Below, in pieces: positions 2,687-42,732 of a stretch of DNA of 48,672 nt. The position numbers were made by a program, and so were the translations under genes. Numbering within the stretch: position 1 is the first letter of the stretch; every line of letters begins with the position of its first letter. The stretch comes from Bacteroidales bacterium (GTDB lineage Bacteria > Bacteroidota > Bacteroidia > Bacteroidales > P3): the NCBI GenBank assembly GCA_017633985.1, contig JAGBOF010000030.1, positions 1 to 48,672 on the forward strand, written 5' to 3'. Below the pieces are notes generated by a model. That model did not search any database. It had not been told where the DNA came from and was given only the letters and a program-made list of their open reading frames with translations.

Positions 2687-2788
2687 ATCGCAGATTATTT
2701 TATTAATCACGCAGATTATTTTACTGATCACGCAGATTATTTTACTGATCTGCGTGATTATTTTTTTCTTATCGCAGATTAATTTTCT
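2687..2788. repeat. Modular intergenic repeat, copy A
   Basis: Three copies of CACGCAGATTATTTT or ATCGCAGATTATTTT in direct orientation are followed by the opposite orientation CTGCGTGATTATTTTTTT, so the block can fold as a hairpin with a T-rich 3' side. It lies just after the flavodoxin-like gene and before a promoter. The same words recur in at least eight other gaps of this window. A terminator role is inferred. Confidence 0.7.
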
Positions 2789-2923
2789 TAAGCGGCGTAT
2801 TGTAAAAACAAGACAATGTAATACAGGATTTATATGCACTTTTAAGGGAATTATCTGCCGCATTGCGGAAATAAAGCAACATATTTTTCTGACATGATTA
2901 AGTTTTAGTTTGGTTATTTTCCG

Positions 2924-2931
2924 TAATTTTG
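2924..2931 (+). promoter_or_regulatory. Bacteroidota -7 element (TAATTTTG)
   Basis: TAATTTTG sits 30 bp before the ATG of the VanX-like gene, after a TTTGG stretch about 20 bp upstream. It fits TAnnTTTG. Confidence 0.6.
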
Positions 2932-2960
2932 CAGTCATATAATATATAATTACAGTAAAA

Positions 2961-3716
2961 ATGAGAAGAAAAAAAATGTTATTGCATGTTGCATTGATAA
3001 GTCTTGTACTTATCGGCACATCCTGTTCAAAAAACAAATCAAATGCGGACAACAATTCCTCAAATGCACAATCCGTTGAAACAAACACCGCAAACGACGG
3101 CAGCGAAAACTTCGTTAATTTGGCAGAAGCCGTACCTGATGCCATTTTGGAGATACGCTACTACTCTACTTACAATTTTGTGGGCAGCAGAATAGATGGT
3201 TACATTGAGCCCATGGCACTTCTGACCAAGGAGGCGGCAAAAGCGCTTAAGCAAGTAAGTGATGAACTCGTTCAGATGGGATACCGCTTAAAGATATACG
3301 ATGCTTACCGTCCGCAAAAGGCTGTTGATCATTTTGTAAGGTGGTCTAAAGATGACAACGACACGCTTATGAAACGTTATTTCTATCCTGATTTAAATAA
3401 AAACGTGCTTTTCGTACAGGACTACATAAATGAAAAAAGCGGACACTCAAGAGGTTCGACCGTTGACTTGACTTTGTTTGACATGTCTACGGAAAAAGAA
3501 GTTGATATGGGCGGAACGTTTGATTTTTTCGGAGAAGAATCCCACCCTGACTACAAAAAAACTCTTACCGAGGCTCAATATTCCAACCGTATGTTGCTTC
3601 GCAACGTTATGATCAAGCACGGATTTAAGCCTTTGGCTTCCGAGTGGTGGCATTTCACGCTTACAAACGAGCCGTTCCCTGATACGTATTTCAATTTCGA
3701 AGTAAAAACTTTGTAA
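2961..3716 (+). CDS. D-alanyl-D-alanine dipeptidase (VanX/DdpX-like), lipoprotein
   Basis: This 251-residue protein has a lipoprotein signal (LVLIGTSCSKN), so it probably acts in the periplasm. The M15D zinc ligands are all present: SGHSRGSTVD gives H162 and D169, and SEWWH gives the catalytic E228 and the third ligand H231. The upstream YDAYRPQ is the family's arginine-containing active-site segment. VanX-type enzymes hydrolyse D-Ala-D-Ala. In VanX itself this serves vancomycin resistance, but DdpX-like members without vanH/vanA neighbours, as here, are usually assigned to peptidoglycan dipeptide salvage. No resistance cluster is visible. The gene is monocistronic, between a repeat block and rlmI. 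Confidence 0.85.
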   Translation: MRRKKMLLHVALISLVLIGTSCSKNKSNADNNSSNAQSVETNTANDGSENFVNLAEAVPDAILEIRYYSTYNFVGSRIDGYIEPMALLTKEAAKALKQVSDELVQMGYRLKIYDAYRPQKAVDHFVRWSKDDNDTLMKRYFYPDLNKNVLFVQDYINEKSGHSRGSTVDLTLFDMSTEKEVDMGGTFDFFGEESHPDYKKTLTEAQYSNRMLLRNVMIKHGFKPLASEWWHFTLTNEPFPDTYFNFEVKTL

Positions 3717-3827
3717 TACCGTACCGCATCTTTATCTTTTGCCAAATAAACGGTACGGAAAGTTAAAAGAATTTCATTTACAATAATAACAAGAGAATAA
3801 TAACACAAAGCGTAGAAATTAAATCAC

Positions 3828-5126
3828 ATGGCACAGGAATATAAACGCATAATACTGCAACCGAATAAAGAAAAATCTTTATCACGCCGCCATCCGTGGC
3901 TGTTTTCTGGTGCAATAGCAAAAAAAGACAGCAATATAAAGGACGGAGACATTGTCGAGATTTTTTCAAATGATGGAAAATATTTGGCAACAGGCTATTT
4001 CCAAAACGAGACCATCGCTGTAAAAGTTTTGACATTCGAAAAACAGGAAATAAATCAGGACTTTATCAACCAGAAAGTGCTTTCTGCCGTAATGTACCGC
4101 AAAACCATGGGCATGTTCGGCGATGAAAACAACACCATATTCCGTCTTATCAACGCCGAAGGCGATTTCCTCCCGGGATTAATCGCTGATTTTTACGAAA
4201 ACATGATTGTCGTTCAGTTCCACAGCGTGGGTATGTATCTGATGCGCGATATGATCGTAAAGGCATTGGCGGAAAATGTGCCCGATATCGAATTTATTTA
4301 CTCCAAATCATCTTCCACCCTACCCAAATGCCAAGACATCCAAGCCAAAGATGAATTCCTTTGGACCAAAAGCCGTGAGGGTAAAGCGTCTGCATTTTCC
4401 GATGAATTTTTCAACCAAATTATGATGTGGGTTGCCACAGAAAACGGATGCAGATACAGTATTGATTTCAAACAAGGGCAAAAGACTGGATTTTTTATCG
4501 ATCAGAAAAGCAACAGAAAACTTGTCAGCGAATTGAGCCGCGGCAAAACGGTGCTGAATTGCTTTTGCTACACAGGGGGATTCTCTCTTGCTGCATTGAA
4601 AGGCGGAGCCGTGAAAGTGGATTCGGTTGATATTTCCAAAAGGGCGCTTAATATCTGCGACGCTAACGTGGATATGAACGGTTTTCATAACAAAACGGCG
4701 GTGACACACTTTGAGGACAAAGAACTTGCCGAAGATATTGCCGCCAAACCCATAGTCCATGAATCCAAATGCGAAGACGTGGTGGAATACATCGATAAAA
4801 TCCCATCAGATATGTATGATATGATCATCTTGGACCCGCCAGCTTTTGCAAAACACCAAAGGGACGTCAATAAAGCGTTGAAAGGTTACCGTACCATCAA
4901 TCAAAAAGCGATGGAAAAGATAAAAAGCGGCGGTCTTTTGTTCACTTTTTCCTGTTCGCAGGCCGTTTCAAGGGAAGAATTTGCTACGATGCTGTTTTCT
5001 TGTGCCGCATTGGCGAAAAGAAACGTAAGAATAGTAAGACGTTTGCCGCATAATTACGACCACCCGCAAAGTATTTTCCACCCCGAAGGCGAATATCTCA
5101 AAGGCTTCTTGCTTTACGTGGAATAA
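3828..5126 (+). CDS. rlmI: 23S rRNA (cytosine-C5)-methyltransferase, RlmI family
   Basis: The 432-residue protein has an N-terminal PUA domain (RHPWLFSGAI and DIVEIFSNDGKYLATGYF, residues about 20-75), a central RlmI-like domain and a C-terminal Rossmann methyltransferase. The SAM-binding segment is NCFCYTGGFSLAAL (about 243), followed by DISKRAL, the catalytic-region motif DPPAF (about 335) and FSCSQ. Family members methylate C5 of a cytosine in 23S rRNA (C1962 in E. coli) in the cytoplasm. It is slightly longer than E. coli RlmI (396). The insertion lies in the middle part (about 280-320), where ELAEDIAAKPIVHESK interrupts the usual spacing. No canonical -7 element is obvious upstream. Confidence 0.85.
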   Translation: MAQEYKRIILQPNKEKSLSRRHPWLFSGAIAKKDSNIKDGDIVEIFSNDGKYLATGYFQNETIAVKVLTFEKQEINQDFINQKVLSAVMYRKTMGMFGDENNTIFRLINAEGDFLPGLIADFYENMIVVQFHSVGMYLMRDMIVKALAENVPDIEFIYSKSSSTLPKCQDIQAKDEFLWTKSREGKASAFSDEFFNQIMMWVATENGCRYSIDFKQGQKTGFFIDQKSNRKLVSELSRGKTVLNCFCYTGGFSLAALKGGAVKVDSVDISKRALNICDANVDMNGFHNKTAVTHFEDKELAEDIAAKPIVHESKCEDVVEYIDKIPSDMYDMIILDPPAFAKHQRDVNKALKGYRTINQKAMEKIKSGGLLFTFSCSQAVSREEFATMLFSCAALAKRNVRIVRRLPHNYDHPQSIFHPEGEYLKGFLLYVE

Positions 5127-5184
5127 ATTCTGCGATATAAGGCGGTAAGGCTGCAATTCCATAATGCCTTTAAGCTGTTTATTT

Positions 5185-5291
5185 CCGCCCCGTGGCGTTT
5201 TAATTTGAAAAAAACTGTTTTTTTACCCCGAAAAAACCCTTTTTTTGAGGTAAAAAAACCCTTTTTTCAGAAATAAAACGCCACGGGGCGG
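5185..5291. repeat. Large palindrome with A/T-run core, copy 1 (probable bidirectional terminator)
   Basis: An 18-bp left arm at 5185-5202 (containing CCGCCCCGTGGCG) is perfectly complementary to 5274-5291. Between the arms lie runs such as GAAAAAAACTGTTTTTTT and AAAAAACCCTTTTTTT that can form their own A/T stems. The element lies between convergent genes (rlmI plus, CHU_C protein minus). A related copy sits at 44916-45024, also at a convergent junction, and both are followed by AAGACGCAA(G/T)AAGGCA. Terminator function for both strands is inferred. Confidence 0.75.
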
Positions 5292-5335
5292 CGACAAGAC
5301 GCAAGAAGGCATAGGTAAATAATAATAAGGCGGGC

Positions 5336-5375
5336 ACAAAAAAGAAAAATCCGCACCGTTTAAAACGTATGCGGA
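5336..5375 (-). terminator. Rho-independent terminator for the minus-strand surface-protein genes
   Basis: Read on the minus strand, a stem TCCGCA/TGCGGA (5370-5375 with 5350-5355) encloses CGTTT/AAACG and is followed by ATTTTTCTTTTTT. It lies about 170 bp after the stop of the 5543-7696 gene. Confidence 0.7.
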
Positions 5376-5542
5376 CCCCTTTAAAAATACATTTATGAAA
5401 AATCAGTAAGTAAGTTTTCTTTTAATACGTACGGCTTTGCTGTAAGTAGAGTTTAATGTGAATTAACATGCGTATTGTTTTTATAAATTCCCGCTAAACG
5501 CTTGGCAAAAGCGTGCTGCACTTGGCAAATACTGCAAACGGT

Positions 5543-7696
5543 TTAACCGACAATATTAACTTCGCCCGTTTTGCGGTATTTCTTGCCTTCTTTTCCCTTA
5601 CGGTAATAATTTACAGTGTAGATATATGTGCCGTTTTGGCAAACCGATCCTTTGTATTTGCCGTCCCAACCTTTGTTTATGTCTTCTGTTTCAAATATCA
5701 ACCCGCCCCAGCGGTTGTATATCTGCAAACTCTCGATTACTATGTCTTCGCTCGACGGGTAAACCTTGAATACTCGGTTCTCGCCGCCGTCACCGTTAGG
5801 TATGATAGCATTTGGTGCCCATATATCAATAGGATCTTCCGCTTCCAAAACCAGTACGACCAAACTGTCGCAACCGTTAACCGTTTTGCTGTCATGTTCG
5901 TAAATTCCGCTGGTGCTTTCATAGAATCCGTCACGCTCGTAAACCGTTCCCGCACCTATCTTGGCAAATATCGTGTCGTTATAGTTCGGGTAAACGGTAA
6001 GTGAAAGCACTATTATGGAGTCGTTGCCGTTTAAAGCGGTAAGCGTATCGGAATAAACGCCGGTGGATGTAAGCGTTCTGCTGCCTAACTGGTAGGTTTC
6101 GCCTTCGCACATTATGCGGTTGATATATATTTTGTCGTCGTAGCGGAGATTCAATGTTATTACGCTGTCGCAACCCGCTGCATTAGGCAATATCTTTACG
6201 TATGTGCCGTCGTCGTTTATTAAGCTGTCGATAAAGTTATAAGTTACCCATGCGTAAATGGTGGTGTCTATTGTCTTATAGGATTTTTCAGACACATTAA
6301 CTTTTATATGCACCACACTGTCGCAGCCATCCATTGTAGGCAATACGGCAGTGTATACACCAGCTGCATAAAGCCTCTGTCCGTTAAAATCTATGGATTG
6401 TTGTTCGCATATAGTCGTGTCAAGATTCACTTCATACACTGGATTAACGTTCAGATGCAAGGTAACGATACTGTCAATACCGACATCGGTTTGCAAAGTA
6501 TCGATATAAATTCCTTGTTCTTCCGCCAAGATGTCATTGAAATGGTAAGTCTCACCCTCGCAAATGTCGGCTGAAATATCTTTGCGGATTGTTATGTCGT
6601 TTATTACAACTATTGTGTCGTAGTTCAAACAGTATTTCAAAAACGAAACATCGTCAAAACAAAAATCGTTACCGTTTTGTGATACTCCGAAGTTCTTTAC
6701 ATCCAAAGTAATCAATGTATCGTCTTCCGTTGTAACATCCACATACAAATCTTCCCATACACCCCAACCTGCTTTTAAGGTGTCGTAAGTCGGTTTTACC
6801 GATTTATTTTTTACAAAGAACCCGAAAATTGCATAATCCTTACCCGGATTTGTATAAGTTCCGCTTGAATTCAAATTTGCAAACTTTGCTCGGAATCTGT
6901 ATGTCGTATAAGGTTCAACAGTAAACGTAACGGAATAAAATGTCTGCCCTCCCGATTTTTGTTGTCCGTCTCCGAAAAAGAAATGATCGCCTGTCTGCGG
7001 CGGATAATTCCATCCGGGTGCGTTGAATTCACTCGGGCACCAATAGTCAGGGTCGCCTTTTTGCGATACTCCTATGGAATAGACTCCCCATCCGAAACCA
7101 CCAGAACCGTTTGGGTCAGGTTTGGGCTTGTATGTAAAATCTGAAGTAAATCCTATATTGCCATGCTTTGCCGCTTCTTCGAAATCGCCGTTAAACACCA
7201 TTTCGTTCTCGTCTTCAAAAGTTGTCTTGATAACATAAACGGCTGTATCTTTAGGATGAACGGTTAAAGAAATACTTTTTGCTTCGGGATCGGATATATT
7301 AGACATGTTGCTGTTATCCAAAGCCAAATTATCCTTATTCAAGGCAAACCATTCGTATGTTTCCATTGAGGTATTGTCCGTCCTTAACTCTATAACGGTA
7401 TCGGTTAATGTGCTTAAGTTAATAGTGTCACGTCTTTTAAGCATCTTTTCTTCAAACATAGGATTGACGGCACACATTTCCGAGCCGGGAGTTTTCAGTT
7501 TGCACCACACTTTAATGTCTTTGCCCGTCGCAGTTTTCTTACCTGTCTTTCCCGAATGGGTAAACACCGTCGTGTCGTTGTACCAATAAGCCTCACCCGA
7601 CCATATAACGACCGTAGTGTCTTCAGTATATATGCTGCCGTATGCTTGTGATAATGTAATTAATAAAAGCGTCAATATAAATAACGTACGTTTCAT
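5543..7696 (-). CDS. T9SS type B (CHU_C) surface protein, 717 aa
   Basis: The protein starts with a signal peptide (MKRTLFILTLLLITLSQAYG). Residues about 150-370 look like a carbohydrate-binding or jelly-roll region introduced by MVFNGDFEEA and ending FCFDDVSFLKYC. Four repeats of about 70 residues follow, with the pattern ICEGETY...GIYIDTL...DSIVTLHLNV. The C-terminal domain is of the gliding-motility-associated CHU_C kind (WAPNAIIPNGDGGENRVF, YNRWGG, GWDGKYKG, GTYIYTVNYY). Known CHU_C proteins are exported by T9SS and held at the cell surface or released. No promoter motif lies in the 62-bp gap to its upstream neighbour, so the two are probably cotranscribed. The N-terminal half differs from the neighbour while the C-terminal half is nearly identical. 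Confidence 0.8.
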   Translation of the reverse strand: MKRTLFILTLLLITLSQAYGSIYTEDTTVVIWSGEAYWYNDTTVFTHSGKTGKKTATGKDIKVWCKLKTPGSEMCAVNPMFEEKMLKRRDTINLSTLTDTVIELRTDNTSMETYEWFALNKDNLALDNSNMSNISDPEAKSISLTVHPKDTAVYVIKTTFEDENEMVFNGDFEEAAKHGNIGFTSDFTYKPKPDPNGSGGFGWGVYSIGVSQKGDPDYWCPSEFNAPGWNYPPQTGDHFFFGDGQQKSGGQTFYSVTFTVEPYTTYRFRAKFANLNSSGTYTNPGKDYAIFGFFVKNKSVKPTYDTLKAGWGVWEDLYVDVTTEDDTLITLDVKNFGVSQNGNDFCFDDVSFLKYCLNYDTIVVINDITIRKDISADICEGETYHFNDILAEEQGIYIDTLQTDVGIDSIVTLHLNVNPVYEVNLDTTICEQQSIDFNGQRLYAAGVYTAVLPTMDGCDSVVHIKVNVSEKSYKTIDTTIYAWVTYNFIDSLINDDGTYVKILPNAAGCDSVITLNLRYDDKIYINRIMCEGETYQLGSRTLTSTGVYSDTLTALNGNDSIIVLSLTVYPNYNDTIFAKIGAGTVYERDGFYESTSGIYEHDSKTVNGCDSLVVLVLEAEDPIDIWAPNAIIPNGDGGENRVFKVYPSSEDIVIESLQIYNRWGGLIFETEDINKGWDGKYKGSVCQNGTYIYTVNYYRKGKEGKKYRKTGEVNIVG
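5552..6475. repeat. 924-bp duplicated segment, copy 1 (partner 7768-8691)
   Basis: This segment aligns without gaps to 7768-8691 at a fixed offset of 2216 bp. It encodes the last repeats and CHU_C domain of both tandem surface proteins. Only a few scattered base changes are seen, leading to two or three conservative residue differences (for example final NIVG versus NIIG and TMDG versus TMEG). Similarity drops sharply upstream of it. Confidence 0.85.
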
Positions 7697-7758
7697 TGTA
7701 AGTAATTATTATTTTAGTTTATTTAATCTCTGTGTTTATTTAATCTTGCTTTGTATTG

Positions 7759-9843
7759 TTATCCTATAATATTAACTTCGCCCGTTTTGCGGTATTTCTT
7801 TCCTTCTTTTCCCTTGCGGTAATAATTTACAGTGTAGATATATGTGCCGTTTTGGCAAACCGATCCCTTGTATTTGCCGTCCCAACCTTTGTTTATATCT
7901 TCTGTCTCAAATATCAATCCGCCCCAACGGTTGTATATCTGCAAGCTCTCTATTACTATATCTTCGCTTGACGGGTAAACCTTGAATACTCGGTTTTCGC
8001 CGCCGTCACCGTTCGGTATGATAGCATTCGGTGCCCATATATCAATAGGGTCTTCCGCTTCCAAAACTAATACCACCAAACTGTCGCAACCGTTAACCGT
8101 TTTGCTGTCATGTTCGTAAATTCCGCTGGTGCTTTCGTAGAATCCGTCACGCTCGTAAACCGTTCCCGCACCTATCTTGGCAAATATCGTGTCGTTATAG
8201 TTCGGATAAACAGTAAGTGAAAGCACTATTATGGAGTCGTTGCCGTTTAAAGCGGTAAGCGTATCGGAATAAACGCCAGTGGATGTAAGCGTTCTGCTGC
8301 CTAACTGGTAGGTTTCGCCTTCGCACATTATGCGGTTGATGTATATTTTGTCGTCGTAGCGGAGATTCAGCGTTATTACGCTGTCGCAACCCGCTGCATT
8401 AGGCAATATCTTTACGTATGTGCCGTCGTCGTTTATTAAACTGTCAATAAAGTTATAAGTTACCCATGCGTAAATAGTTGTGTCTATTGTCTTATAGGAT
8501 TTTTCAGACACATTAACTTTTATATGTACCACACTGTCGCAGCCTTCCATTGTAGGCAATACGGCAGTGTATACACCAGCTGCATAAAGCCGCTGTCCGT
8601 TAAAATCTATTGACTGTTGTTCGCATATAGTCGTATCAAGATTCACTTCATACACTGGATTAACGTTCAGATGCAAGGTAATGATACTGTCCATTCCGAT
8701 TTCGGTCTTTAATGTGTCGATGTAAGTACCTTGTTCTTCTACAGTCTTGCCGTTGAATTGATAGGTTTCACCTTCGCATAACGTAACGTTGACTGTCTCC
8801 CGTATTCTGGTATCATTAACGATGGTTATCGTATCGTATGCGGTACACATCTTGTAAAACCTGATATTGTCTATCGTAAAATCGTTACCTCCTTTAGCCG
8901 TGTTTTGATTTAAAATAGTTATAGTTGCCAATGTATCGTCGCCACTGTACCATATTTCATAAAAATCTTTAGTCCAAGTATCTTTTTTAGCAGATATCTT
9001 AAAAACATCACCCAACTGTACACCGTTTACAGCAAATTGAAAACGCGGAATAGCCGACTCATCACTGTTGGAAATATTGGCAGCATCAAACATAACAATA
9101 TAGTTCACATGAGGCTCACAGTCAAAGGTTGATGCATAAGCAATTTTATTCTGTCCCGGTGCACCGTTTGCTATAAGCATATTGCCATATTCCGATCCTG
9201 CAAAGTTACTGAAATTGGAATGATAATCATTCGGATTGTCCCCTACCGTATATTTACCTTCGTCCCATAAAGCCGTACCACCTTTTGTAGACACATAACC
9301 GTAATCGCTCCAAAAGCCCAGTTTGCCTTCTTCGAAATCACCGTTAAAAACTATATTGGTGTAATCTTCTTCCATTGTCTGAAGAACATATTGCACTGTC
9401 TGCAAAGGATGAACCGTTACCTGTACAGTATTGGAAGTTTTATCACCCGAAATATTCTTTTCATCGTCGGGATTAACCGCAAACCACTTATAATGCGGCG
9501 AAGACTCCTGTGTAGTCAATGTTATAACCGTATCCGTTTTGGTTTTAAGCATTGTATCGCCTATAATCTTCACATAACAACCTTCCGAACCGACATTATT
9601 GGCTGTAAACCTTACGTCCCACGCCTCTATAATGGTTTTTCCTGATTCGTCTTTGGTTTTAAAATAATACGTACCCGAGTGTGTGATAACCGAATCGGGA
9701 TTATCGGTATATATTGCCTGTCCTTGTATACCTAATTTGGTAATATGCACGGTATCCAGCGGAGCAAACGCAGATATTTCCGCCATCAAAGCATTATTAC
9801 CAAGACAGAACAACAAAACAATTATAAACAATATCTTTTTCAT
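7759..9843 (-). CDS. T9SS type B (CHU_C) surface protein, 694 aa, tandem paralogue
   Basis: The signal peptide is MKKILFIIVLLFCLGNNALM. Residues about 165-340 form a jelly-roll-like region (IVFNGDFEEGKLGFWSDYG ... DFTIDNIRFYKMC), distinct in sequence from that of the downstream paralogue. The C-terminal about 310 residues are the same four ICEGETY/DSI repeats and CHU_C domain, nearly identical to the neighbour. This suggests two cell-surface proteins with different ligand-binding heads on the same stalk and anchor. A -7 element at 9870 (minus) fits as the promoter of both genes. Confidence 0.8.
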   Translation of the reverse strand: MKKILFIIVLLFCLGNNALMAEISAFAPLDTVHITKLGIQGQAIYTDNPDSVITHSGTYYFKTKDESGKTIIEAWDVRFTANNVGSEGCYVKIIGDTMLKTKTDTVITLTTQESSPHYKWFAVNPDDEKNISGDKTSNTVQVTVHPLQTVQYVLQTMEEDYTNIVFNGDFEEGKLGFWSDYGYVSTKGGTALWDEGKYTVGDNPNDYHSNFSNFAGSEYGNMLIANGAPGQNKIAYASTFDCEPHVNYIVMFDAANISNSDESAIPRFQFAVNGVQLGDVFKISAKKDTWTKDFYEIWYSGDDTLATITILNQNTAKGGNDFTIDNIRFYKMCTAYDTITIVNDTRIRETVNVTLCEGETYQFNGKTVEEQGTYIDTLKTEIGMDSIITLHLNVNPVYEVNLDTTICEQQSIDFNGQRLYAAGVYTAVLPTMEGCDSVVHIKVNVSEKSYKTIDTTIYAWVTYNFIDSLINDDGTYVKILPNAAGCDSVITLNLRYDDKIYINRIMCEGETYQLGSRTLTSTGVYSDTLTALNGNDSIIVLSLTVYPNYNDTIFAKIGAGTVYERDGFYESTSGIYEHDSKTVNGCDSLVVLVLEAEDPIDIWAPNAIIPNGDGGENRVFKVYPSSEDIVIESLQIYNRWGGLIFETEDINKGWDGKYKGSVCQNGTYIYTVNYYRKGKEGKKYRKTGEVNIIG
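7768..8691. repeat. 924-bp duplicated segment, copy 2 (partner 5552-6475)
   Basis: Second copy of the segment described at 5552-6475, direct orientation, ungapped. The high identity of the DNA, including synonymous sites, implies recent duplication or gene conversion. Confidence 0.85.
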
Positions 9844-9869
9844 ACTTTATTTACAAGTATTTAATTGTG

Positions 9870-9877
9870 CAAATTTA
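9870..9877 (-). promoter_or_regulatory. Bacteroidota -7 element, minus strand (TAAATTTG)
   Basis: CAAATTTA on the plus strand reads TAAATTTG on the minus strand, 27 bp before the ATG at 9843. It is the only good TAnnTTTG for the tandem surface-protein pair. Confidence 0.55.
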
Positions 9878-10730: not shown

Positions 10731-11678
10731 ATGGACTTTGACGGATATTTGGAGGATTTTAAGTATTTTTTATCGGTGGAACGCTCGGTAAGCAACAACA
10801 CCACTGCCGCATATATGATTGATTGCGGCAGGTTCTGCGAATTTCTCAAAGACAATTACCCTGATATAAGTCCAAAGGAGATAACTCCGCAAATTATAAA
10901 CGGATTTTTAGACAGCATAATACTTTTTACCGACCGCAGTGAGGAAGAAAGATTACTCAAAGCAACCTCCCTGACACGTATAATACAATCAATCAGGGCG
11001 TTTTTCAGGTTTTTAATCCTTACGGACGTCATTGACAAGGACGTAAGCCAACTGATAATAACACCCAAAGCCGAAATAAAATTGCCCGTTATATTGGAAC
11101 AAAGCGAGATATTCGCAATGATGGATGCCGTGGACACAAGTACGGGATTCGGTGTAAGAAACCGTCTGACTATTGAGTTCTTATATGCAACGGGATTGCG
11201 TGTAAGTGAGTTTGTGAACCTAAAAACGGAAAACATCAACCTAAAAGATGAATATTTGGATATAATAGGCAAAGGCAATAAGGAAAGATACGTCCCCGTT
11301 GCAAAGAAAGTTTTGGACGATTTGACGTATTATACCGACAATTACAGAAGTAAAATAGACATCAAACCCAAAGACAGGGATTATGTGTTTATATCCGAAA
11401 GGCGTAAGGGCAAAATGACCCGTCAGGCTGTCAACAAAATGCTTAACGAAACGGCTTTAAAGGCGGGAATAACTAAAAAAATACATCCGCATATATTAAG
11501 ACATTCCTTTGCTACGGAACTGATACGCTCGGGAGCCAGTTTGATAGCCGTAAAGGAAATGATGGGGCATGCAAGCGTCCGTTCAACCGAAATTTATGTC
11601 AATCTGAACACGAAAGACCTCAAAGAAACTTTGCAAAAATACCATCCGTTTTATCAAAACAACAAGACGCAAAAATAA
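10731..11678 (+). CDS. xerD: Tyrosine recombinase XerD-like
   Basis: The 315-residue protein has an N-terminal SAM-like core-binding domain and a C-terminal catalytic domain with all expected residues: R in ATGLRVSEFVNL, K in GKGNKERYVPV, HxxR in HPHILRHSFATEL, H in MMGHASVRS and Y in TEIYVNL. Length and absence of extra domains fit the housekeeping Xer recombinase that resolves chromosome dimers at dif with a partner, rather than an integron or phage integrase. XerC versus XerD cannot be settled from this sequence alone. No dif-like site was recognised here. Start ATG 10731 lies 6 bp after the mtgA stop. Confidence 0.85.
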   Translation: MDFDGYLEDFKYFLSVERSVSNNTTAAYMIDCGRFCEFLKDNYPDISPKEITPQIINGFLDSIILFTDRSEEERLLKATSLTRIIQSIRAFFRFLILTDVIDKDVSQLIITPKAEIKLPVILEQSEIFAMMDAVDTSTGFGVRNRLTIEFLYATGLRVSEFVNLKTENINLKDEYLDIIGKGNKERYVPVAKKVLDDLTYYTDNYRSKIDIKPKDRDYVFISERRKGKMTRQAVNKMLNETALKAGITKKIHPHILRHSFATELIRSGASLIAVKEMMGHASVRSTEIYVNLNTKDLKETLQKYHPFYQNNKTQK

Positions 11679-11777
11679 GACGGCGTTTTACGAAATTATT
11701 CTGCGTGATTAATAAATTATTCTGCGTGATTAATTTCTTAAAACGCCGTAAAAATTTCTTAAAACGGCGTCTTTTTT
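11678..11777. repeat. Modular intergenic repeat, copy B (probable bidirectional terminator)
   Basis: The block starts at the last base of the xerD stop codon. AGACGGCGTTTTA on the left pairs with TAAAACGGCGTCT on the right, enclosing two direct CTGCGTGATTAAT words and an inner AAAACGCCG. It ends in a T run and lies between convergent xerD and the comB-like gene. Confidence 0.75.
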
Positions 11778-11792
11778 CAGTCTGTCGGCGTA

Positions 11793-12527: not shown

Positions 12528-12584
12528 AATTCATTTAGCATTTTAAAGCATTTAATATAGTATTAGCGCATATCACATAGTACA

Positions 12585-12658
12585 TCCTCCATAACACCTA
12601 CTACATACTACATATCACATCATACATACTACATAATACGTCCTACATACTACATAGT
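12585..12658. repeat. Short degenerate repeats of CATACTACAT
   Basis: The gap before the CHU_C stop contains several copies of CATACTACAT-like words (CTACTACATACTACATA, CATACATACTACATAA, CCTACATACTACATAG) spaced irregularly by 8-20 bp. No good hairpin is seen. Words of related sequence (TACTGCAT, GTACTG) also occur in the gaps at 34533-34580 and 38331-38400. Function unknown. Confidence 0.5.
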
Positions 12659-15880: not shown

Positions 15881-15917
15881 CTGTTTTTATTCTTAAAAAA
15901 ATCAACAAGCCTTCCCA

Positions 15918-15987
15918 CGGAAATAATACGCCGTTTTATTTTACTAAAACGCCTGATTATTTAATTAAAACGCCTGATTATTTCCGC
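15918..15987. repeat. Modular intergenic repeat, copy C
   Basis: CGGAAATAAT at the left end pairs with ATTATTTCCG at the right end; inside are ACGCCGTTTTATTTTA, then two direct copies of TAAAACGCCTGATTATTT. It separates the TonB receptor gene from the M16-like gene, both on the minus strand. Confidence 0.7.
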
Positions 15988-16016
15988 AATATGTAACTTT
16001 CATAAATTCAATTGTT

Positions 16017-18466: not shown

Positions 18467-18509
18467 CAAAATTTATTTGCATTAACAACACTTTTATCGC
18501 ATTTGATTA

Positions 18510-18595
18510 AAATAAAACGCCGTTTTACGAAATTAATCTGCGTGATTAATAAAATAATCAGCCTGATTAATTTATTAAAACGGCGTTTTATTTTT
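18510..18595. repeat. Modular intergenic repeat, copy D
   Basis: AAATAAAACGCCGTTTTA at the left end pairs with TAAAACGGCGTTTTATTT at the right end. Between them lie CTGCGTGATTAAT and CAGCCTGATTAAT. It follows the DUF5103 gene on the minus strand and precedes the TonB receptor promoter. Confidence 0.75.
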
Positions 18596-18618
18596 GCTAT
18601 AAGGATGTGCCTGTAAAT

Positions 18619-22335: not shown

Positions 22336-22447
22336 ATCGTACAGCGTCGTTTTCAGTTTGCAATATTATGAAATTTTATCCACTTGAACAAAAGTTTTAT
22401 AAAAAATATTCAAAATCATTGATAAAAAACCTGACATAACATACCGC

Positions 22448-22530
22448 AAAAATAAAACGCCGTTTTAAAAAATTAAAACAACGTTTCAGTAAATTAATAC
22501 GGCGTTTTAATTTCTTAAAACGCCGTATCG
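22448..22530. repeat. Modular intergenic repeat, copy E
   Basis: AAATAAAACGCCGTTTTA, then TAAAACAACGTTTCAGTAAATTA-like inner sequence, then ATACGGCGTTTTAATTTC and TTAAAACGCCGTAT. The words can pair in more than one way. It lies immediately downstream of rny on the minus strand. Confidence 0.7.
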
Positions 22531-22548
22531 CTAAATTATTATTTATCT

Positions 22549-24165: not shown

Positions 24166-24377
24166 GACTGCATCCCGCCGAAAACATTGGAGTATCTGCA
24201 AAAACTCCTTTATGAAGGTTTTAGGCTTTAAACGGTATCAAGCTTCCGCCGCTTGTGTTACCAAGATTTACATATTTGAACATGTAAATTGGGGTCTGCT
24301 TTAGCCGTCAATTGCACCCGTTTCTGTATTATTACTGTTGAGTTTGCGAACTGTTATTTCCGACAACGAATGCAATC
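24166..24377 (-). ncRNA. ssrS: Probable 6S RNA
   Basis: On the minus strand, a 5' segment (24377-24364, GATTGCATTCGTTG) pairs with a 3' segment (24180-24166, CGGCGGGATGCAGTC) over 14 base pairs with one bulged G, and a T-rich run follows at 24165-24152. Inside are an AAACGG/CCGTTT stem (24323-24318 with 24235-24230) and an apical hairpin, CCAA-TTTACAT with ATGTAAA-TTGG, at 24292-24261. Length of about 212 nt, a long closing stem, a large internal bubble and an apical rod are the 6S layout. The position between zapA and rny is where 6S RNA is found in several phyla next to zapA. 6S RNA binds housekeeping RNA polymerase in stationary phase. Not verified by a covariance model. Confidence 0.75.
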
Positions 24378-24426: not shown

Positions 24427-24729
24427 TCAGTCTAAATTTGCGGAAAGGTATTCATTTATATCTTTTAATTTCTCCAATAACTTTCCGTTTGCTTCGGCAT
24501 CACCTGCCGCTTTCTTATTTCTTATTGCGGATACGGTACTTTCCAATAAAGCCATAGCTAAAAGATCTTGTTTATCTCTGTATACTGCACCCTTTGCAGC
24601 ATATCTTTGCACCGATTCTTCTATCAACGTACCCGCTTGACGGAATATTTCTTCATCCTCACGCCTTACCCTTACCGAATAAGGCCGCTGTAAAATATCT
24701 ATCTTTATCGTCAAACTACTATCCGTCAT
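24427..24729 (-). CDS. zapA: Cell division protein ZapA
   Basis: The 100-residue protein matches ZapA: SLTIKIDILQRPYSVRV at the N terminus with the family's arginine-bearing strand, EEIFRQAGTLIEESVQRY, and a C-terminal helix (LAMALLESTVSAIRNKKAAG) that forms the dimer coiled coil. ZapA binds and bundles FtsZ filaments at midcell. Its start overlaps the end of the upstream coiled-coil gene by 11 bp, implying cotranslation. The probable 6S RNA follows. Confidence 0.85.
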   Translation of the reverse strand: MTDSSLTIKIDILQRPYSVRVRREDEEIFRQAGTLIEESVQRYAAKGAVYRDKQDLLAMALLESTVSAIRNKKAAGDAEANGKLLEKLKDINEYLSANLD

Positions 24730-31361: not shown

Positions 31362-31482
31362 AGATATTTTTTCAAAATAACGCTTTTTCCCGTTATCTTT
31401 TAATAATAATTGCGGCATTTTTTGCAATCTGCCGTACATCCTTAAAATCATATAAATACAAAGGTGCGGCAAACGGCGAAAA

Positions 31483-31566
31483 TAATCAGGCGTTTTAATA
31501 AATTTTCATCGCTGATTAATTTACTGAAACGCCGTTTTATTTTAACGAAACGCCGTTTTAATTTTT
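31483..31566. repeat. Modular intergenic repeat, copy F
   Basis: Words AATAATCAGGCGTTTTAATAAATTT, ATCGCTGATTAATTT, ACTGAAACGCCGTTTTATTTTA and ACGAAACGCCGTTTTAATTTTT follow one another. It lies between divergent Sel1 and yceD genes, so here it is not simply at a 3' end. The remaining gap to 31730 shows nothing recognisable. Confidence 0.65.
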
Positions 31567-31733
31567 CGGGAAGGTTTTTTGATTTTTTCATACATAAAAA
31601 CCGTTTTATAACAGGGCTTTTCATTACATCTTCTTAACACTTTCAACCAATCATAAAACATTTTAAATTAACAATTTACAACCTAAACTAAAATAAATTG
31701 ACGCAATATTATTGTCATATTAAAAAAAAGTTG

Positions 31734-35480: not shown

Positions 35481-35586
35481 CTTACGCCACACAGACCGAA
35501 TCACAGCAAAAACCTATCTTTCAATATCATTTTGCATTGTAATTCAAAATTTATTTGCACTTTTGCAAAACAGAACATATAAAAAT

Positions 35587-35909
35587 ATGCAAGTATATTA
35601 CGATAACATATTAAATAGTATCAGAAGTAAGCAAAAGAAATAATTCCTGAAGATGCAAAATTAATTCTTTTCGGTTCTCAAGCAAGAAAAGATGCCGATA
35701 ATGAGTCTGATTGGGATTTGCTTTTATTGCTGAATAAAAAAGATATTTCCGAAACAGATTACAATAAGTATGTATGGCCGTTGGTACAGTTGGGGTGGAA
35801 TCTCGGCGAATATTTTTCCGTTAAAATGTATTCCATGGAAGATTGGAATAAAAGAATATTCACACCATTCTATAACAACGTAGAACAGGAAGGAGTTTTA
35901 TTTTACTAA
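35587..35909 (+). pseudogene. MNT-type nucleotidyltransferase, frameshifted
   Basis: ATG 35587 begins MQVYYDNILNSIRSK, then the frame stops at 35641-35643. One frame over, the sequence continues AKEIIPEDAKLILFGSQARK and DADNESDWDLLLLLNKKDIS to a stop at 35909. A single extra base in GTAAGCAAAAG (about 35629) joins them into a 107-residue protein. GSQAR with SDWDLL is the catalytic GSxaR...DxD pattern of minimal nucleotidyltransferases. Such proteins often form two-gene modules with a HEPN partner; none follows here. Either the gene is broken or the base is a sequence error. Confidence 0.75.
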
Positions 35910-36003
35910 TCTGCGAGAAGAAAAAATTATTCTCGCAGATTATTTTATTAATCACGCAGATTAATTTTTTTATATCGCTGATTAATTTCGCGGGACGGCG
36001 TTA
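35906..36003. repeat. Modular intergenic repeat, copy G
   Basis: Starts within the last codons of the preceding gene. AATCTGCGAGAAG, TTCTCGCAGATTATTTTATTA, ATCACGCAGATTAATTTTTTTA and ATCGCTGATTAATTTCGCG follow. CTGCGAGAA and TTCTCGCAG form a strong 9-bp hairpin. It lies between the convergent nucleotidyltransferase and hflX genes. Confidence 0.7.
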
Positions 36004-36023
36004 GTTTTCTGTGCAGTGTGTTT

Positions 36024-37193: not shown

Positions 37194-37219
37194 AAATTAT
37201 CGATATATATTTTCTGAAT

Positions 37220-38290: not shown

Positions 38291-38333
38291 TCTTATTAAA
38301 GCAAAAATATGTACTGCTTACTATGTAAGGTGT

Positions 38334-38400
38334 ACTGTGTTCCATGTACTGCATAATAGGTGTGCCGAAGATTGCACGGCACATTGTACACAGAACACAG
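38334..38400. other. Nested hairpin between mscS and the flippase-like gene
   Basis: CTGTGTTC (38334-38341) pairs with GAACACAG (38393-38400), TGTAC (38345-38349) with GTACA (38386-38390), and GTGCCG (38362-38367) with CGGCAC (38377-38382). No T run follows on either strand at once, so termination is uncertain. Confidence 0.5.
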
Positions 38401-38410
38401 CATATAAAAT

Positions 38411-39265: not shown

Positions 39266-39342
39266 TTAATTTTTTATAATTCTTATACTTTTTTACGCTG
39301 TTTTGTCACTTTAGAAAACAAATACGCTACATTAACGGAATA

Positions 39343-39453
39343 ATGCGGCGTTTTATTTTATTAATCTGCGTGATTAATAAAATAATCTGCGAGATTAAAA
39401 AATTATTATCGCAGATTAATTTTCTAATCACGCAGATTATGTTGACGTTTTGT
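39343..39453. repeat. Modular intergenic repeat, copy H
   Basis: GCGGCGTTTTATTTTATTA, ATCTGCGTGATTAAT, AATCTGCGAGATTAA, ATCGCAGATTAATTTTCTA and ATCACGCAGATTAT succeed one another; ATCTGCGTGATTA pairs with TAATCACGCAGAT-like sequence downstream. It follows the BspA-like gene on the minus strand and is duplicated at 42611-42732 together with the end of that gene. Confidence 0.75.
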
Positions 39454-39462
39454 AACTTCTTA

Positions 39463-41898
39463 TTATTCTATTATCAACGGCTGCGTAAATTTACCCACAT
39501 GAATGTAGTAAACACCCGTTTCAAAATCGCTAACATTGATATTGAATTTCGGAGATGTGATATTGGATTTATAGATAACTTGTCCTTTATTGTTTACAAT
39601 AGTAACCGTTTGGTTCTTATCCGATATCAAATGTCCGACATCCACTGTAACAACGTCTTTTGCCGGGTTCGGGTAAATACTGATGATTCTTTCTTGCTGA
39701 ATTTCTTCAATCCCTGCCGTAACCTGCAATATCAATGTAACAATACTGTCGCATCCGTCACCAGTTTGCAGATTTAAAGTATATTCACCTGCATCGGATT
39801 CTGTGAAACCGAAATTATTGTAGGTTTCTCCGTTGTTTATCGTAGCATAAATATATGTCCTCGTCACTCCGCACGGCGTTATGGTGTCATGAAGATACAA
39901 AGTATCGGTAACAGTCTCTGTTATGGTGTCGTGAAGATAGATCGTATCGGTAACAGTCTCTGTTAATGTAATGGTATCATATAAAGTAGTTTTTATTGTA
40001 TCATGTAATGTTACTGTATCAGTTACATTTTTTATAATTGTTACAGTATCTACGAATTTAGGGATAACGGACAGATTCAAAGTAATAATACTGTCACATC
40101 CCGCAGTTGATTGTAACGTAGTTGTATATGTTCCTGATGTTGTAAGGTTGCTGTTTGCGAATGAATAACTCTCTCCTTCAAAGATAGAAACTTCAACTTG
40201 TGTTTTATATGCATCTTTTTCTACCAGATAGAGATTAACTATGGTGTCCGGGGCGTTTTGTGTTATGAATCTCTTTGTATAGAATCCAGGGAAAGTAAGT
40301 TTATTCCAACCGAAATACATTTCACCGTTATATATAAACGTGCTGCCTTCACAACCTGCAACAACAGAGTCAATAATAACAGGAGGTGCTAACGGACTTA
40401 CAGTATCATTACACCATTCCGTTATTGTTAAGAATTTTGTCCAATCGGAACTTTTTAATTGATAATAAGTCATTCTCCCGCACGGGACAATAATTTTTGT
40501 ATATATAGATGAATCCATCGTGGTATATGGTGATAATTTTTGTTTATAATTATATATTGCATACTTTTCTTCAAATGAAGGAGGATTCTCTGCATATACA
40601 ACTATAGTATCCATTTGACATTCATCAAATGCATGGTTCTTGATTAAATAAACGTCTTTCGGAATAGTTACGACTTTTAAATGAGCACATTTTTGAAATG
40701 CTCCGTTTGGTATAGATGTTACTTTTTCAGGAATTTCCACTCTTTTTAATCCTGAATTATAAAAGGCAGAATCGCTTATTGTTGTAATGGAATTAGGCAA
40801 CTGTATAGATGTAACGCTGTCGCACCACATCATAAAATATTTCGGAAGACTTTTAACAGAATCTCCTATAATTATTTGTTTTATTAAACTACTATTATCA
40901 TCGTTAGCATACTCCCCACCTAAATCATATATACCAAATATTCCTCTATGACGTAATTTATAAAGATAATTACTGCTACTATACCATTTTTCATTTCTAG
41001 TTATGGTATGACTTGCATTTATTGCATTATAAGTTACCTTTTCTAAATTGGTGCATCCCACAAAAGGAAGTTCTCCTATCCAAGTAATTTGTGCAGGTAT
41101 GGTTATTTCTTTTAATCTGGATAAACCTTTCAAAAAGAAATGCGGAATATATTTGACATTACTGCCAATAGTTACTTCGCTGATTTGATAACAATCTTCC
41201 AACCAATGTTTATTAACAGGAGAAAGTTTTCCATTATATTCATATGAATAATAACACTCCGAAACATTAATAATACTGTCTGCATTATAATAAAGAGACG
41301 TAACACTAATACAACCTTTAAAAGAAGAAAGTCCTATATATTTAACTCTCTCCGAAATCTTTATTGTCTGTAACGCCTGACAATAAGTAAAGGTAGAATC
41401 TCCTAAAAATCTCAAACTGTCAGGCATTTCGGTAGTTAATTCTTTGCAATTATAGAACGCCATGCGTTGAATAGTATCCACAGTGTTAGGAATAGAGAAT
41501 TCTTCCAAAGATGTACATCCATAGAATGCTTCTTGTCCTATATAAGTCATCTTCTTGGAACTGTTAGTTAAAACCTTTTGCAGATTTATGCAGTTTATAA
41601 ATGCTGCATATCCTATACGCTCTATACTTTTAGGAAGTTCTACACTGAATAGTTGATCACAGTCTCTAAATGCTTCATTGCCTATTGTGGATACTGTATA
41701 ATTTACACTTTCGTAATACACAGATTGAGGAATGGTAACATTCCCTGAATAACTGTTATAGGTCTTATCCTTATATGTCACGCTGACGCTTATTTTGTTG
41801 GGATTTATATTGTAATAAATCCCGTTTACCTCGAAATCGTATGCGAATAACTGTATGCTTAATATTGTTAAGCATAGTAAAGAAAAAATCTTTTTCAT
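39463..41898 (-). CDS. BspA-type leucine-rich-repeat protein with T9SS type A sorting domain
   Basis: The 811-residue protein has a signal peptide (FSLLCLTILSIQLFAYDF) and about twelve BspA-type leucine-rich repeats between residues 50 and 450 (for example VSTIGNEAFRDCDQLFSVEL, YIGQEAFYGCTSLEEFSIPN). Two DSI/GETY repeats like those of the CHU_C proteins at 5.5-9.8 kb follow, with a short low-complexity repeat between (TVTDTIYLHDTITETVTDTL). A type A sorting domain ends it (ISIYPNPAKDVVTVDV, GVYYIHVG). BspA-like proteins mediate surface adhesion. A strong AAGGAGGT sequence precedes the ATG by 4 nt, unusual in Bacteroidota. It lies 18 bp after a 90-residue gene. Confidence 0.82.
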   Translation of the reverse strand: MKKIFSLLCLTILSIQLFAYDFEVNGIYYNINPNKISVSVTYKDKTYNSYSGNVTIPQSVYYESVNYTVSTIGNEAFRDCDQLFSVELPKSIERIGYAAFINCINLQKVLTNSSKKMTYIGQEAFYGCTSLEEFSIPNTVDTIQRMAFYNCKELTTEMPDSLRFLGDSTFTYCQALQTIKISERVKYIGLSSFKGCISVTSLYYNADSIINVSECYYSYEYNGKLSPVNKHWLEDCYQISEVTIGSNVKYIPHFFLKGLSRLKEITIPAQITWIGELPFVGCTNLEKVTYNAINASHTITRNEKWYSSSNYLYKLRHRGIFGIYDLGGEYANDDNSSLIKQIIIGDSVKSLPKYFMMWCDSVTSIQLPNSITTISDSAFYNSGLKRVEIPEKVTSIPNGAFQKCAHLKVVTIPKDVYLIKNHAFDECQMDTIVVYAENPPSFEEKYAIYNYKQKLSPYTTMDSSIYTKIIVPCGRMTYYQLKSSDWTKFLTITEWCNDTVSPLAPPVIIDSVVAGCEGSTFIYNGEMYFGWNKLTFPGFYTKRFITQNAPDTIVNLYLVEKDAYKTQVEVSIFEGESYSFANSNLTTSGTYTTTLQSTAGCDSIITLNLSVIPKFVDTVTIIKNVTDTVTLHDTIKTTLYDTITLTETVTDTIYLHDTITETVTDTLYLHDTITPCGVTRTYIYATINNGETYNNFGFTESDAGEYTLNLQTGDGCDSIVTLILQVTAGIEEIQQERIISIYPNPAKDVVTVDVGHLISDKNQTVTIVNNKGQVIYKSNITSPKFNINVSDFETGVYYIHVGKFTQPLIIE

Positions 41899-41902
41899 AC
41901 TT

Positions 41903-41910
41903 ACCTCCTT
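41903..41910 (-). promoter_or_regulatory. Canonical Shine-Dalgarno sequence before the BspA-like gene
   Basis: On the minus strand AAGGAGGT ends 4 nt before ATG 41898. Most genes in the window have no recognisable Shine-Dalgarno sequence, as is normal for Bacteroidota, so this one stands out. Confidence 0.6.
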
Positions 41911-41916
41911 TTTGTT

Positions 41917-42189
41917 TTAGTTAAGAAGTTTAAAACTCTTGATAAGAACGCTTTTAGGCTCTTTATCCACTTGATAACCCTTGACATTGTAACGTCTTGT
42001 TATCTCCCTTGCAATTTGAGCATTCATTTGCTGCTGCATATTCTTGTCGGCAATCAAATTGATATACTCTTTAAGGTATTCAGGATTGTTTTGAATAAAA
42101 CAAAATACCTCATCCGTAATGTCAGTTACTTCTGCATTAGGATTTTCATTCTGAAATCTGTTCAGTAAATAATTAATGTACTGTTGCAT
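41917..42189 (-). CDS. Hypothetical protein, 90 aa
   Basis: The small protein is mostly helical by composition (QQYINYLLNRFQNENPNAEV, EYLKEYINLIADKNMQQQMN) with a charged C terminus (YQVDKEPKSVLIKSFKLLN). There is no signal peptide or known motif. Gap to the BspA-like gene is 18 bp, so it is probably cotranscribed. A structured leader of about 300 nt precedes it, from a -7 element at 42503. I do not recognise the family. Confidence 0.6.
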   Translation of the reverse strand: MQQYINYLLNRFQNENPNAEVTDITDEVFCFIQNNPEYLKEYINLIADKNMQQQMNAQIAREITRRYNVKGYQVDKEPKSVLIKSFKLLN

Positions 42190-42328
42190 CTTATTAAAAT
42201 ATTTTTAACACACCTACTCTAAAAACAGTTTTCGGTATTCCCTGTTTTGAGATTGAGGCTATATGTTTTAAGGAGGATAAAAGAAAGACGTAAATCTTTC
42301 GTATTAGCCGCTTATTTATGGAATGGTT

Positions 42329-42436
42329 GTCTGGAATACCCCTATACAAATAAGAGAACGATACAATTCACGTCAAAGACGCAACTTGCCGTAACTTTTA
42401 TTATTCTTGTATAGCGGTTAAAAGTTTTCCAGACAT
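42329..42436 (-). promoter_or_regulatory. Structured leader RNA upstream of the 90-aa gene
   Basis: On the minus strand GTCTGGAA (42436-42429) pairs with TTCCAGAC (42336-42329), and inside it CTATACAA (42414-42407) pairs with TTGTATAG (42349-42342). Both stems are perfect 8-mers and nested. Inside again is CGTC-TTT-GACG. The promoter lies about 65 bp upstream, the gene start about 140 nt downstream. A shorter AAAACAG/CTGTTTT stem lies nearer to the ATG (about 42218-42244). No riboswitch family is recognised. Confidence 0.55.
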
Positions 42437-42502
42437 TTATCCACAAGAACAAAAGCTTCAAGCTCAATTTGCTGTGCCAATTATATATTGAAATTGACTC
42501 TG

Positions 42503-42510
42503 CAAAAGTA
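42503..42510 (-). promoter_or_regulatory. Bacteroidota -7 element, minus strand (TACTTTTG)
   Basis: CAAAAGTA on the plus strand reads TACTTTTG on the minus strand and is preceded by ATCTTTG. Transcripts from here would carry a leader of about 310 nt to the 90-residue gene. The same ATCTTTGTACTTTTG context occurs at 43519. Confidence 0.55.
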
Positions 42511-42610
42511 CAAAGATTTTTCGAATTTGCAACAAAATTTCACTGAAAAGATATTTTCAGACATTAAAGCATCGACTGCTAAAATGAAGACGCCGTCCCG
42601 CAAAATTATT

Positions 42611-42732
42611 CTGCGTGATTAATAAAATAATCTGCGAGATTAAAAAATTATTATCGCAGATTAATTTTCTAATCACGCAGATTATTTTCGCGTTTTGTAA
42701 CTTCTTATTATTCTATTATCAACGGCTGCGTA
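42611..42732. repeat. Copy of the end of the BspA-like gene plus repeat H (copy I)
   Basis: 122 bp align ungapped with 39366-39487 with three mismatches. The copied part covers the modular repeat and the last about 25 bp of coding sequence of the BspA-like gene (encoding the end TQPLIIE), in the same orientation. There is no coding body attached to this copy, so it is a remnant. Confidence 0.8.

What the first reader, a model, noticed from the sequence alone, without database searches (positions are those of the whole stretch)
2687..42732. Dispersed modular palindromic repeat family in intergenic gaps
Copies at 2687, 11678, 15918, 18510, 22448, 31483, 35906, 39343 and 42611 (plus a single word at 48414) are built from the same few words (CTGCGTGATTAAT, ATCGCAGATTA, AAAACGCCGTTTTA, AAACGCCTGATTATT) joined by AT spacers in varying number, order and orientation. 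They fold into hairpins and usually lie at gene ends. Free combination of words distinguishes them from ordinary terminators and from REP or MITE elements of fixed sequence. They may be terminators spread by recombination, or targets of a nucleoid or recombination protein.
Basis: partly seen in the sequence, partly recalled or inferred. Interest (0 to 1): 0.75.

Follow-up and report, generated by a model that had tools for sequence, protein, structure and literature searches.

The report
Two-turn-phased intergenic repeat arrays
Gaps between genes in this bacterium often hold short arrays of imperfect repeats spaced exactly 21 bases (two turns of the DNA helix) apart; several related species have arrays with a 21- or 22-base spacing but different words, which suggests a DNA-level role that no known repeat family explains.

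Summary
All nine sites are arrays of 3-6 degenerate ~17-bp dyads at an exact 21-bp step; site centres in 40 own-genome loci lie 21 bp apart 137 times, 20 bp once, 22 bp never. In the window the words are confined to the arrays (34 of 47 profile hits; the other 13 match a shuffled expectation of 11.6). The exact word is absent from 13 same-genus species, yet 6 of the 8 sampled to 25 kb or more gave a 21- or 22-bp hit, mostly arrays with other words; no other period from 14 to 40 exceeds two hits. Sisters G001/G005 keep the backbone but not the core. RNA folding, curvature and dyad symmetry each fail in some species; only the 21/22-bp step is shared. Arrays fill 59 of 137 gaps of at least 100 bp in six species, divergent gaps included. 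No REP transposase in 14 genomes. I favour platforms for a species-specific DNA-binding protein that can act as a bidirectional barrier (confidence 0.4); RNA terminators and function-free minisatellites stay open. No protein was identified.

The parts
2672..2804 (.). 21-bp array, 6 units (tandem gap between + genes)
11665..11783 (.). 21-bp array, 5 units, starts at the stop codon of a phage-integrase-family gene (called xerD here, name recalled); convergent gap
15913..15990 (.). 21-bp array, 3 units; tandem gap
18498..18600. 21-bp array, 4 units; 3' of the T9SS plug-protein gene; below the cut, found
22446..22540 (.). 21-bp array, 4 units; directly 3' of the RNase Y gene
31478..31570 (.). 21-bp array, 4 units; gap called divergent (right-hand ORF not verified by family)
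35900..36004 (.). 21-bp array, 3 units counted by the unit cutter; 3' of a GTP-bdg_N/M GTPase gene (HflX-like, name recalled)
39336..39446 (.). 21-bp array, 5 units; tandem gap
42592..42695 (.). 21-bp array, 4 units; 42605-42732 is 97% identical to 39360-39487
5161..5311 (.). second family (A6-7 / core / T6-7), best period about 22 bp; convergent gap
44894..45044 (.). second family, other copy; convergent gap; this stretch has many 70-85% matches dispersed in G013

Best explanation
The repeats are DNA-level arrays. Each unit is one degenerate site (in this species a dyad of two half-words such as TTAATC and TAAAAC around a GC-containing core), mostly 3-6 and up to 14 in a row at exactly two helical turns, so that a protein can sit side by side on one face of the helix. 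I infer a dimeric, sequence-specific, abundant DNA-binding protein (nucleoid or insulator type) whose preferred core differs between species, so that cores change together over many loci while the step stays. By blocking the gap from both sides such an array would act as a bidirectional barrier, and at some gene ends it stands where relatives have an ordinary terminator. Shown: the step, the unit grammar, confinement to gaps in the window, species-specific words, in-place unit inversion and whole-unit loss between sisters. Inferred: the protein, its binding, the barrier function.
For: Exact step: centre spacing 21 bp 137 times, 42 bp 6 times, 20 bp once. Over the window plus stretches of 28 relatives the period spectrum is 21:31, 22:17, 42:19, 44:9, with at most 2 at any other period from 14 to 40 and none in Markov controls (hits not filtered for coding or simple repeats). 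Own units: T at -7 92%, A at -6 82%, centre C/G 93%; 174 distinct of 229; dyad symmetry above column-permuted controls, mean z 2.30, n=58. Orientation of like cores random, 23:23, and unit order/flip no better for RNA folding (50 of 58 arrays tested). Core differs while spacers are shared: AATCNCGCAGATTA 113 times in G000, 0 in G001 and G005, whose arrays read e.g. TTAATCTCTCACACTAA with spacers also common in the own genome. Arrays in divergent gaps with Pfam-supported genes on both sides in the 5 cases submitted. Polarity of spacers ignores gene direction, 15 vs 13. xerD 3' gap: own and 6 of 10 relatives carry an array, in species-specific words except that the sisters G001 and G005 agree.
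Against: No binding protein was identified and no array was shown to bind anything. Dyad symmetry is absent in G007 (z 0.00, n=13) and G012 (z -0.37, n=5), so a uniform dimer model fails there. Several unrelated word families coexist in one genome (G013), which would need several proteins or a sequence-blind ruler. Between G001 and G005 the 13 alignable arrays change faster than other intergenic DNA (8.3% vs 5.9%), not slower. Own arrays have a strong A-before-T spacer order (T-to-A steps 8 vs 44.7 +/- 3.6 expected), which resembles bidirectional terminators and is not predicted by a plain site array. Apart from the xerD gap, array positions are mostly not shared at the orthologous gaps looked at.
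Confidence: 0.4

Rival explanations
1. Bidirectional intrinsic transcription terminators: units pair with each other in the RNA, and the T-type spacers act as U-tracts.
For: Arrays sit close to 3' ends (median 38 nt; 61 nt in six species); in own loci only 1 of 45 array-bearing 3' ends has a canonical hairpin-T element before the array (the space is short, so this is partly geometric); RNase Y in own has an array where most relatives have a hairpin-T element, read by eye; xerD in G009 has a hairpin-T element, by eye, where others have arrays. RNA folding z: own -2.95 (57 of 58 arrays), G001/5 -2.30 (25), G013 -4.37 (14). Unit order has a small folding effect, mean z -0.40. A-then-T order in own and G013.
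Against: 10 of 51 own arrays and 11 of 59 array-bearing gaps in six species are divergent, 5 own cases supported by Pfam on both sides. Fold z is -0.26 in G012 (n=4) and -1.37 in G007 (n=13). G007 has terminator plus array at RNase Y (by eye), and the A-then-T order is reversed in G007 (1:5, 9 arrays) and absent in G001/5 (7:5, 37 arrays, sisters not independent). Spacer polarity ignores gene direction. Hairpins need no strict 21-bp step.
Confidence: 0.25
2. Function-free minisatellites made by a mutational ruler: a two-turn-long DNA or protein-DNA structure templates duplication, loss and hairpin-loop inversion of units in AT-rich gaps.
For: Many word families at the same step, several in one genome; exact 21-bp unit loss, in-place inversion of one unit and A/T flips at palindrome centres between G001 and G005; substitutions faster than in other intergenic DNA; positions turn over.
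Against: Does not by itself explain one shared core type over many loci of a genome, a T at -7 that stays prominent in G001/5 (0.78) and G012 (0.93), though not in G007 (0.49), or arrays in 59 of 137 gaps.
Confidence: 0.2
3. Mobile element (REP/BIME, MITE or BrickBuilt type) copied by a transposase.
For: Dispersed, species-specific, intergenic. Some end features recur: TGTAAC at +8 in 9 of 116 flanks, ACGGCGT at +7 in 5, TTTTGC at -2 in 13, and a few copies share about 50 bp of flank.
Against: No Y1 transposase (PF01797) match in 14 genomes, with 5 of 14 control genomes ringing; no terminus common to most of the 116 flanks (the longer shared flanks look like paralogous gene ends, by inference); arrays absent from the sister genome show no clean insertion.
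Confidence: 0.08

Closest known systems
REP / BIME elements (E. coli, Pseudomonas and others)
   Same: Dispersed, intergenic, modular palindromic units in mixed orientation, species-specific, often 3' of genes; BIMEs are regularly spaced
   Different: REPs carry GTAG or CGTC tags and GTAG types go with RAYT transposases (PMC3733652, PMC2817692, passages read); here no such transposase, free half-words, and a strict 21/22-bp step
BrickBuilt MITE minisatellite of Porphyromonas gingivalis
   Same: Intergenic imperfect 23-nt tandem repeats at 19 loci (PMC4596501, section 5 read, other passages seen); same order of bacteria, recalled
   Different: BrickBuilt has one repeat sequence, and many copies have leader, tail and IS-like terminal repeats; here no common terminal repeats, many words, 21 or 22 bp, and arrays in about two fifths of the larger gaps sampled
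Intrinsic bidirectional terminators
   Same: 3'-end bias, hairpin potential, A-before-T order in own arrays
   Different: Also in divergent gaps; on average no folding advantage of the real unit arrangement; strict helical step
Hairpin-loop small inversions (recalled from chloroplast intergenic DNA)
   Same: In-place flip of a short segment between inverted flanks
   Different: Here units belong to phased arrays

Membership tests
REP/BIME | cognate Y1/RAYT transposase in the genome | tested here: not met
   PF01797: 0 of 14 genus genomes at E 0.001; drafts, completeness 69-100%
REP/BIME | stem-loop with GTAG or CGTC tag at one end (PMC3733652, passages) | tested here: not met
   Main half-words TTAATCTG, TTAATCAC, TTAAAACG carry no such tag; read from the unit table, no separate tag search was run; CGTC occurs inside some outer units
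REP/BIME | extragenic, many copies | tested here: met
   122 word hits genome-wide; 34 of 47 profile hits in window arrays, rest at chance
MITE / BrickBuilt | terminal inverted repeats or common leader and tail | tested here: not met
   116 flanks of 58 arrays listed; no terminus common to most, though TTTTGC at -2 recurs in 13 and TGTAAC at +8 in 9
MITE / BrickBuilt | target-site duplication / clean empty site | tested here: inconclusive
   G005:C48 arrays near 24724 and 84366 face unrelated DNA in G001; no clean insertion
Intrinsic terminator | restricted to transcript 3' ends | tested here: not met
   11 of 34 divergent gaps occupied; 5 own cases with Pfam support
Intrinsic terminator | stable hairpin followed by U-tract | tested here: inconclusive
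   Foldable in own, G001/5, G013, not in G012; 16 of 45 own ends terminator-like when the array is included
Phased A-tract curved DNA | curvature above composition-matched controls | tested here: not met
   Own arrays z 0.38, G012 0.60; but G013 2.46, G001/5 1.77, G007 1.47 (wedge values recalled from memory)
CRISPR array | identical repeats with unique spacers | tested here: not met
   Units degenerate, 174 distinct of 229; spacers are a few recurring AT words
Protein-binding site array | binding by a protein | not testable with these tools
   no protein identified

The most novel reading that the evidence does not exclude
A fast-evolving, species-specific chromosome-organising protein occupies two-turn-phased arrays in about two fifths of the larger intergenic gaps of these species, and its specificity switches drag the core of hundreds of arrays (extrapolated from array density) with it, a bacterial counterpart of drive-like co-evolution between a repeat and its binder.
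Probability: 0.25. Interest if true: 0.88.

Novelty: new variant of a known kind. Interest (0 to 1): 0.62.

Why it matters
If the phase is functional, about 43% of the larger gaps sampled in six of these species (59 of 137) carry a regular protein-binding or barrier structure that annotation ignores. The sister pair G001/G005 shows unit inversion, unit loss and word change at about 5% divergence, so the birth and turnover of bacterial intergenic repeats can be studied directly. The absence of REP transposases separates this from the standard explanation for modular palindromes.

Tried and rejected
RAYT/REP: no transposase. RNA hairpin as the common property: not supported by the unit-shuffle test or by G012, though a small order effect (mean z -0.40) remains. 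DNA curvature as the common property: own arrays not curved. Dyad symmetry as the common property: absent in G007 and G012. Polarity A-then-T as a law: strong in own, reversed in G007. Phage or plasmid origin: no match for one array (39330-39450) at E 0.001. Rfam: no gathering-level match in the window. Naming the host: the one genome-contig scan gave 23 stretches from other organisms, own-genome records may be left out by the tool; none has a 21-bp array at the word, and one, a Cytophagaceae MAG (L065), has a different 21-bp array elsewhere. HU-type proteins were searched mainly to obtain genome handles. Positional conservation: xerD gap widely shared, RNase Y, HflX and others mostly not.

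Limits of counts: gene calls are a simple longest-ORF scheme; 3 of the 17 G005 arrays lie in ORFs of that caller. Own array loci other than the window were chosen by word hits, so gap-type numbers are biased; one search is fairer but its G005 and G001 contigs, and the second round of G007, G012 and G013 stretches, were chosen after arrays had been seen there. The same holds for per-genome counts. Period hits were not filtered for coding or simple repeats: of the nine 21-bp window hits one is the simple repeat at 12561, and the array at 18498 is below that cut. Samples of relatives are thin, some contigs short or masked; one of 20 regions asked for does not exist.
Full report
OBSERVATION. The window is G000:C29:1-48672 of a 2.39-Mb draft genome in 36 contigs; its proteins include a T9SS plug protein and TonB-type receptors, which suggests Bacteroidales (inference); the tools did not name the species. 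A 21-bp period is found at eight of them and at all nine with a shorter window. The same scans also mark a 7/14/21-bp simple repeat at 12552-12675 and, weakly, the second family at 5207 and 44933. The word ATCWSGCRKATTA occurs 122 times in the genome, its reversed control twice.

ANATOMY. I collected 58 arrays in 40 of 42 own loci scanned (the loci other than the window were fetched by word hits). Cut in register they give 229 units, 174 of them distinct; 8 arrays kept two units, 49 three to seven, one fourteen. Each half of a unit reads T(-7) 92%, A(-6) 82%, A(-5) 78%, T(-4) 69%, and the centre is C or G in 93%. The half-words TTAATCTG, TTAATCAC, TTAAAACG and others combine freely. Distances between neighbouring profile hits (up to 90 bp): 21 bp 137 times, 42 bp 6 times, 20 once, 16 once, five other values once each. 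In the window 34 of 47 hits lie in arrays and the other 13 match a shuffled expectation of 11.6.

GRAMMAR. Neighbouring units with the same core are direct 23 times and inverted 23 times; second neighbours 19 and 7. The AT spacers follow an A-then-T order along the array: T-to-A steps occur 8 times against 44.7 +/- 3.6 in shuffles, 2 against 17.6 +/- 2.5 for inner spacers only. Cores follow the arms loosely, 63:34 by my grouping of the six main words. The order is not tied to gene direction (15 vs 13) and is not general: 7:1 in G013 (19 arrays), 7:5 in G001/5 (37 arrays), 1:5 in G007 (9 arrays).

CONTEXT. Of 58 own arrays 6 fell inside ORFs of my crude caller and 1 more lacked a neighbour; of the other 51, 27 are tandem, 14 convergent, 10 divergent. 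The flanking genes of five of the divergent cases were submitted and all have Pfam matches, for example a tRNA pseudouridine synthase and a SpoU methylase. In six species together arrays occupy 16 of 28 convergent, 32 of 75 tandem and 11 of 34 divergent gaps of at least 100 bp (convergent vs divergent p = 0.07). In own loci 45 gene 3' ends have an array within 110 nt and only one has a canonical hairpin-T element before it; of 54 ends without an array the strict finder gave 9, and more are visible by eye.

RELATIVES. AATCNCGCAGATTA: 113 in G000, 0 in each of 13 same-genus genomes, one isolated hit in each of two more distant ones (the two were read). Yet stretches of the relatives hold arrays of the same step with other words. 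Pooled over 29 genomes the spectrum is 21:31, 22:17, 42:19, 44:9, 41:3 and at most 2 elsewhere from 14 to 40, none in Markov controls. 16 of the 28 relatives gave no hit at 20-23 or 41-44, among them 5 same-genus genomes with 5-15 kb sampled each (G001 among them, which proved to have arrays later), 4 of the same family and 7 of the order. Some single hits look like coding or low-complexity repeats (G003, G015, G060). G007, G009, G012 and G016 have 21-bp arrays, G013 and G014 mainly 22 bp, and G013 has at least four word families. In 19 further genomes of the phylum (20 kb each) there was one 22-bp hit and two 42-bp hits in one genome, none at 21.

SISTERS. G001 and G005 share spacers with the own genome (TTATTTTATTAATC and others) but not its core. 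Along 80 kb of G005 aligned to G001 there are 17 arrays: 13 align, 2 face unrelated DNA, 2 cross a block edge. One unit is inverted in place, one array differs by exactly one 21-bp unit, and two palindrome centres flip A/T. The 13 alignable arrays differ at 8.3% of sites against 5.9% in other intergenic DNA; indel events are 4 (3.6 per kb: three of 1 bp, one of 21) against 45 (6.2 per kb), too few to judge.

ORTHOLOGOUS GAPS. 3' of xerD the scan calls an array in own and in 6 of 10 relatives (G001, G005, G003, G013, G007, G012), in species-specific words except that G001 and G005 agree; G006 shows a short one by eye, G009 has an ordinary terminator by eye, G011 none called, G010 runs off the contig. 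3' of RNase Y the own genome has an array near the stop codon; of 12 relatives G007 has a hairpin-T element followed by a long array, G005 a weak array hit, G004 a short array-like stretch by eye, and most have a hairpin-T element, read by eye. Other gaps are shared only sporadically.

TESTS OF MECHANISM. Real unit order and orientation fold on average no better than shuffles: mean z -0.40 (order), +0.20 (flip), +0.13 (both), 50 of 58 arrays with at least three units. Against composition shuffles the arrays do fold in some species: own -2.95 (57 of 58), G001/5 -2.30 (25), G013 -4.37 (14), G007 -1.37 (13), G012 -0.26 (4). Curvature z: own 0.38, G012 0.60, G007 1.47, G001/5 1.77, G013 2.46 (wedge values recalled). 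Dyad z: own 2.30, G013 1.57, G016 1.14, G001/5 1.02, G007 0.00, G012 -0.37. Of the properties tested only the two-turn step is common to all these sets, which were themselves picked by that step outside the own genome. No Y1 transposase in 14 genomes.

READING. A step of 21 or 22 bp in unrelated words points to the DNA helix rather than to RNA. The most economical functional account is a phased site array for a DNA-binding protein that differs in specificity between species and blocks or organises gene borders. The multiple word families per genome, the lack of dyads in two species and the fast substitution rate keep the function-free ruler model alive; the 3'-end bias, the replacement of hairpin terminators at some ends and the A-then-T order in the own genome keep the terminator model alive.

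LITERATURE. Nine searches of the held library listed no paper whose title or start of abstract describes two-turn-phased modular arrays in Bacteroidales; three of them listed only part of the papers found, and most subscription papers are not held. BrickBuilt (PMC4596501: section 5 and passages), REP families (PMC3733652, PMC2817692, PMC12306157: passages) and PMC5771137 (passages) were consulted; the rest were seen as listings only.

Noticed in passing
window 24166-24377 (- strand): Conserved non-coding stretch upstream of the RNase Y gene, seen in own and the 8 relatives whose upstream side was printed; best Rfam match 6S-Flavo at 42.3 bits, half its gathering score. Probably a divergent 6S RNA.
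   Followed up: partly
window 12552-12675: Simple repeat of 7/14/21 bp (ACTACATACTACAT type) 3' of a gene; similar stretches at other own 3' ends (L003, L103).
   Followed up: no
window 5543-9843: Two neighbouring minus-strand ORFs with 94% identical 300-nt stretches at their 3' ends, apparently a tandem duplication.
   Followed up: no
L065 1782-1958: Cytophagaceae MAG TD116_bin49 carries a very regular 21-bp array (TTCCCCATGTTAGGGGAA type), found by accident.
   Followed up: no
L216 5443-5637 (G001:C158): A 22-bp array with GGTCTGA/TCAGACC words in a genome whose other arrays are 21 bp, within a gap that does not align to G005.
   Followed up: no
window 46088-46183: Three direct 32-bp repeats upstream of a + strand ORF.
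   Followed up: no
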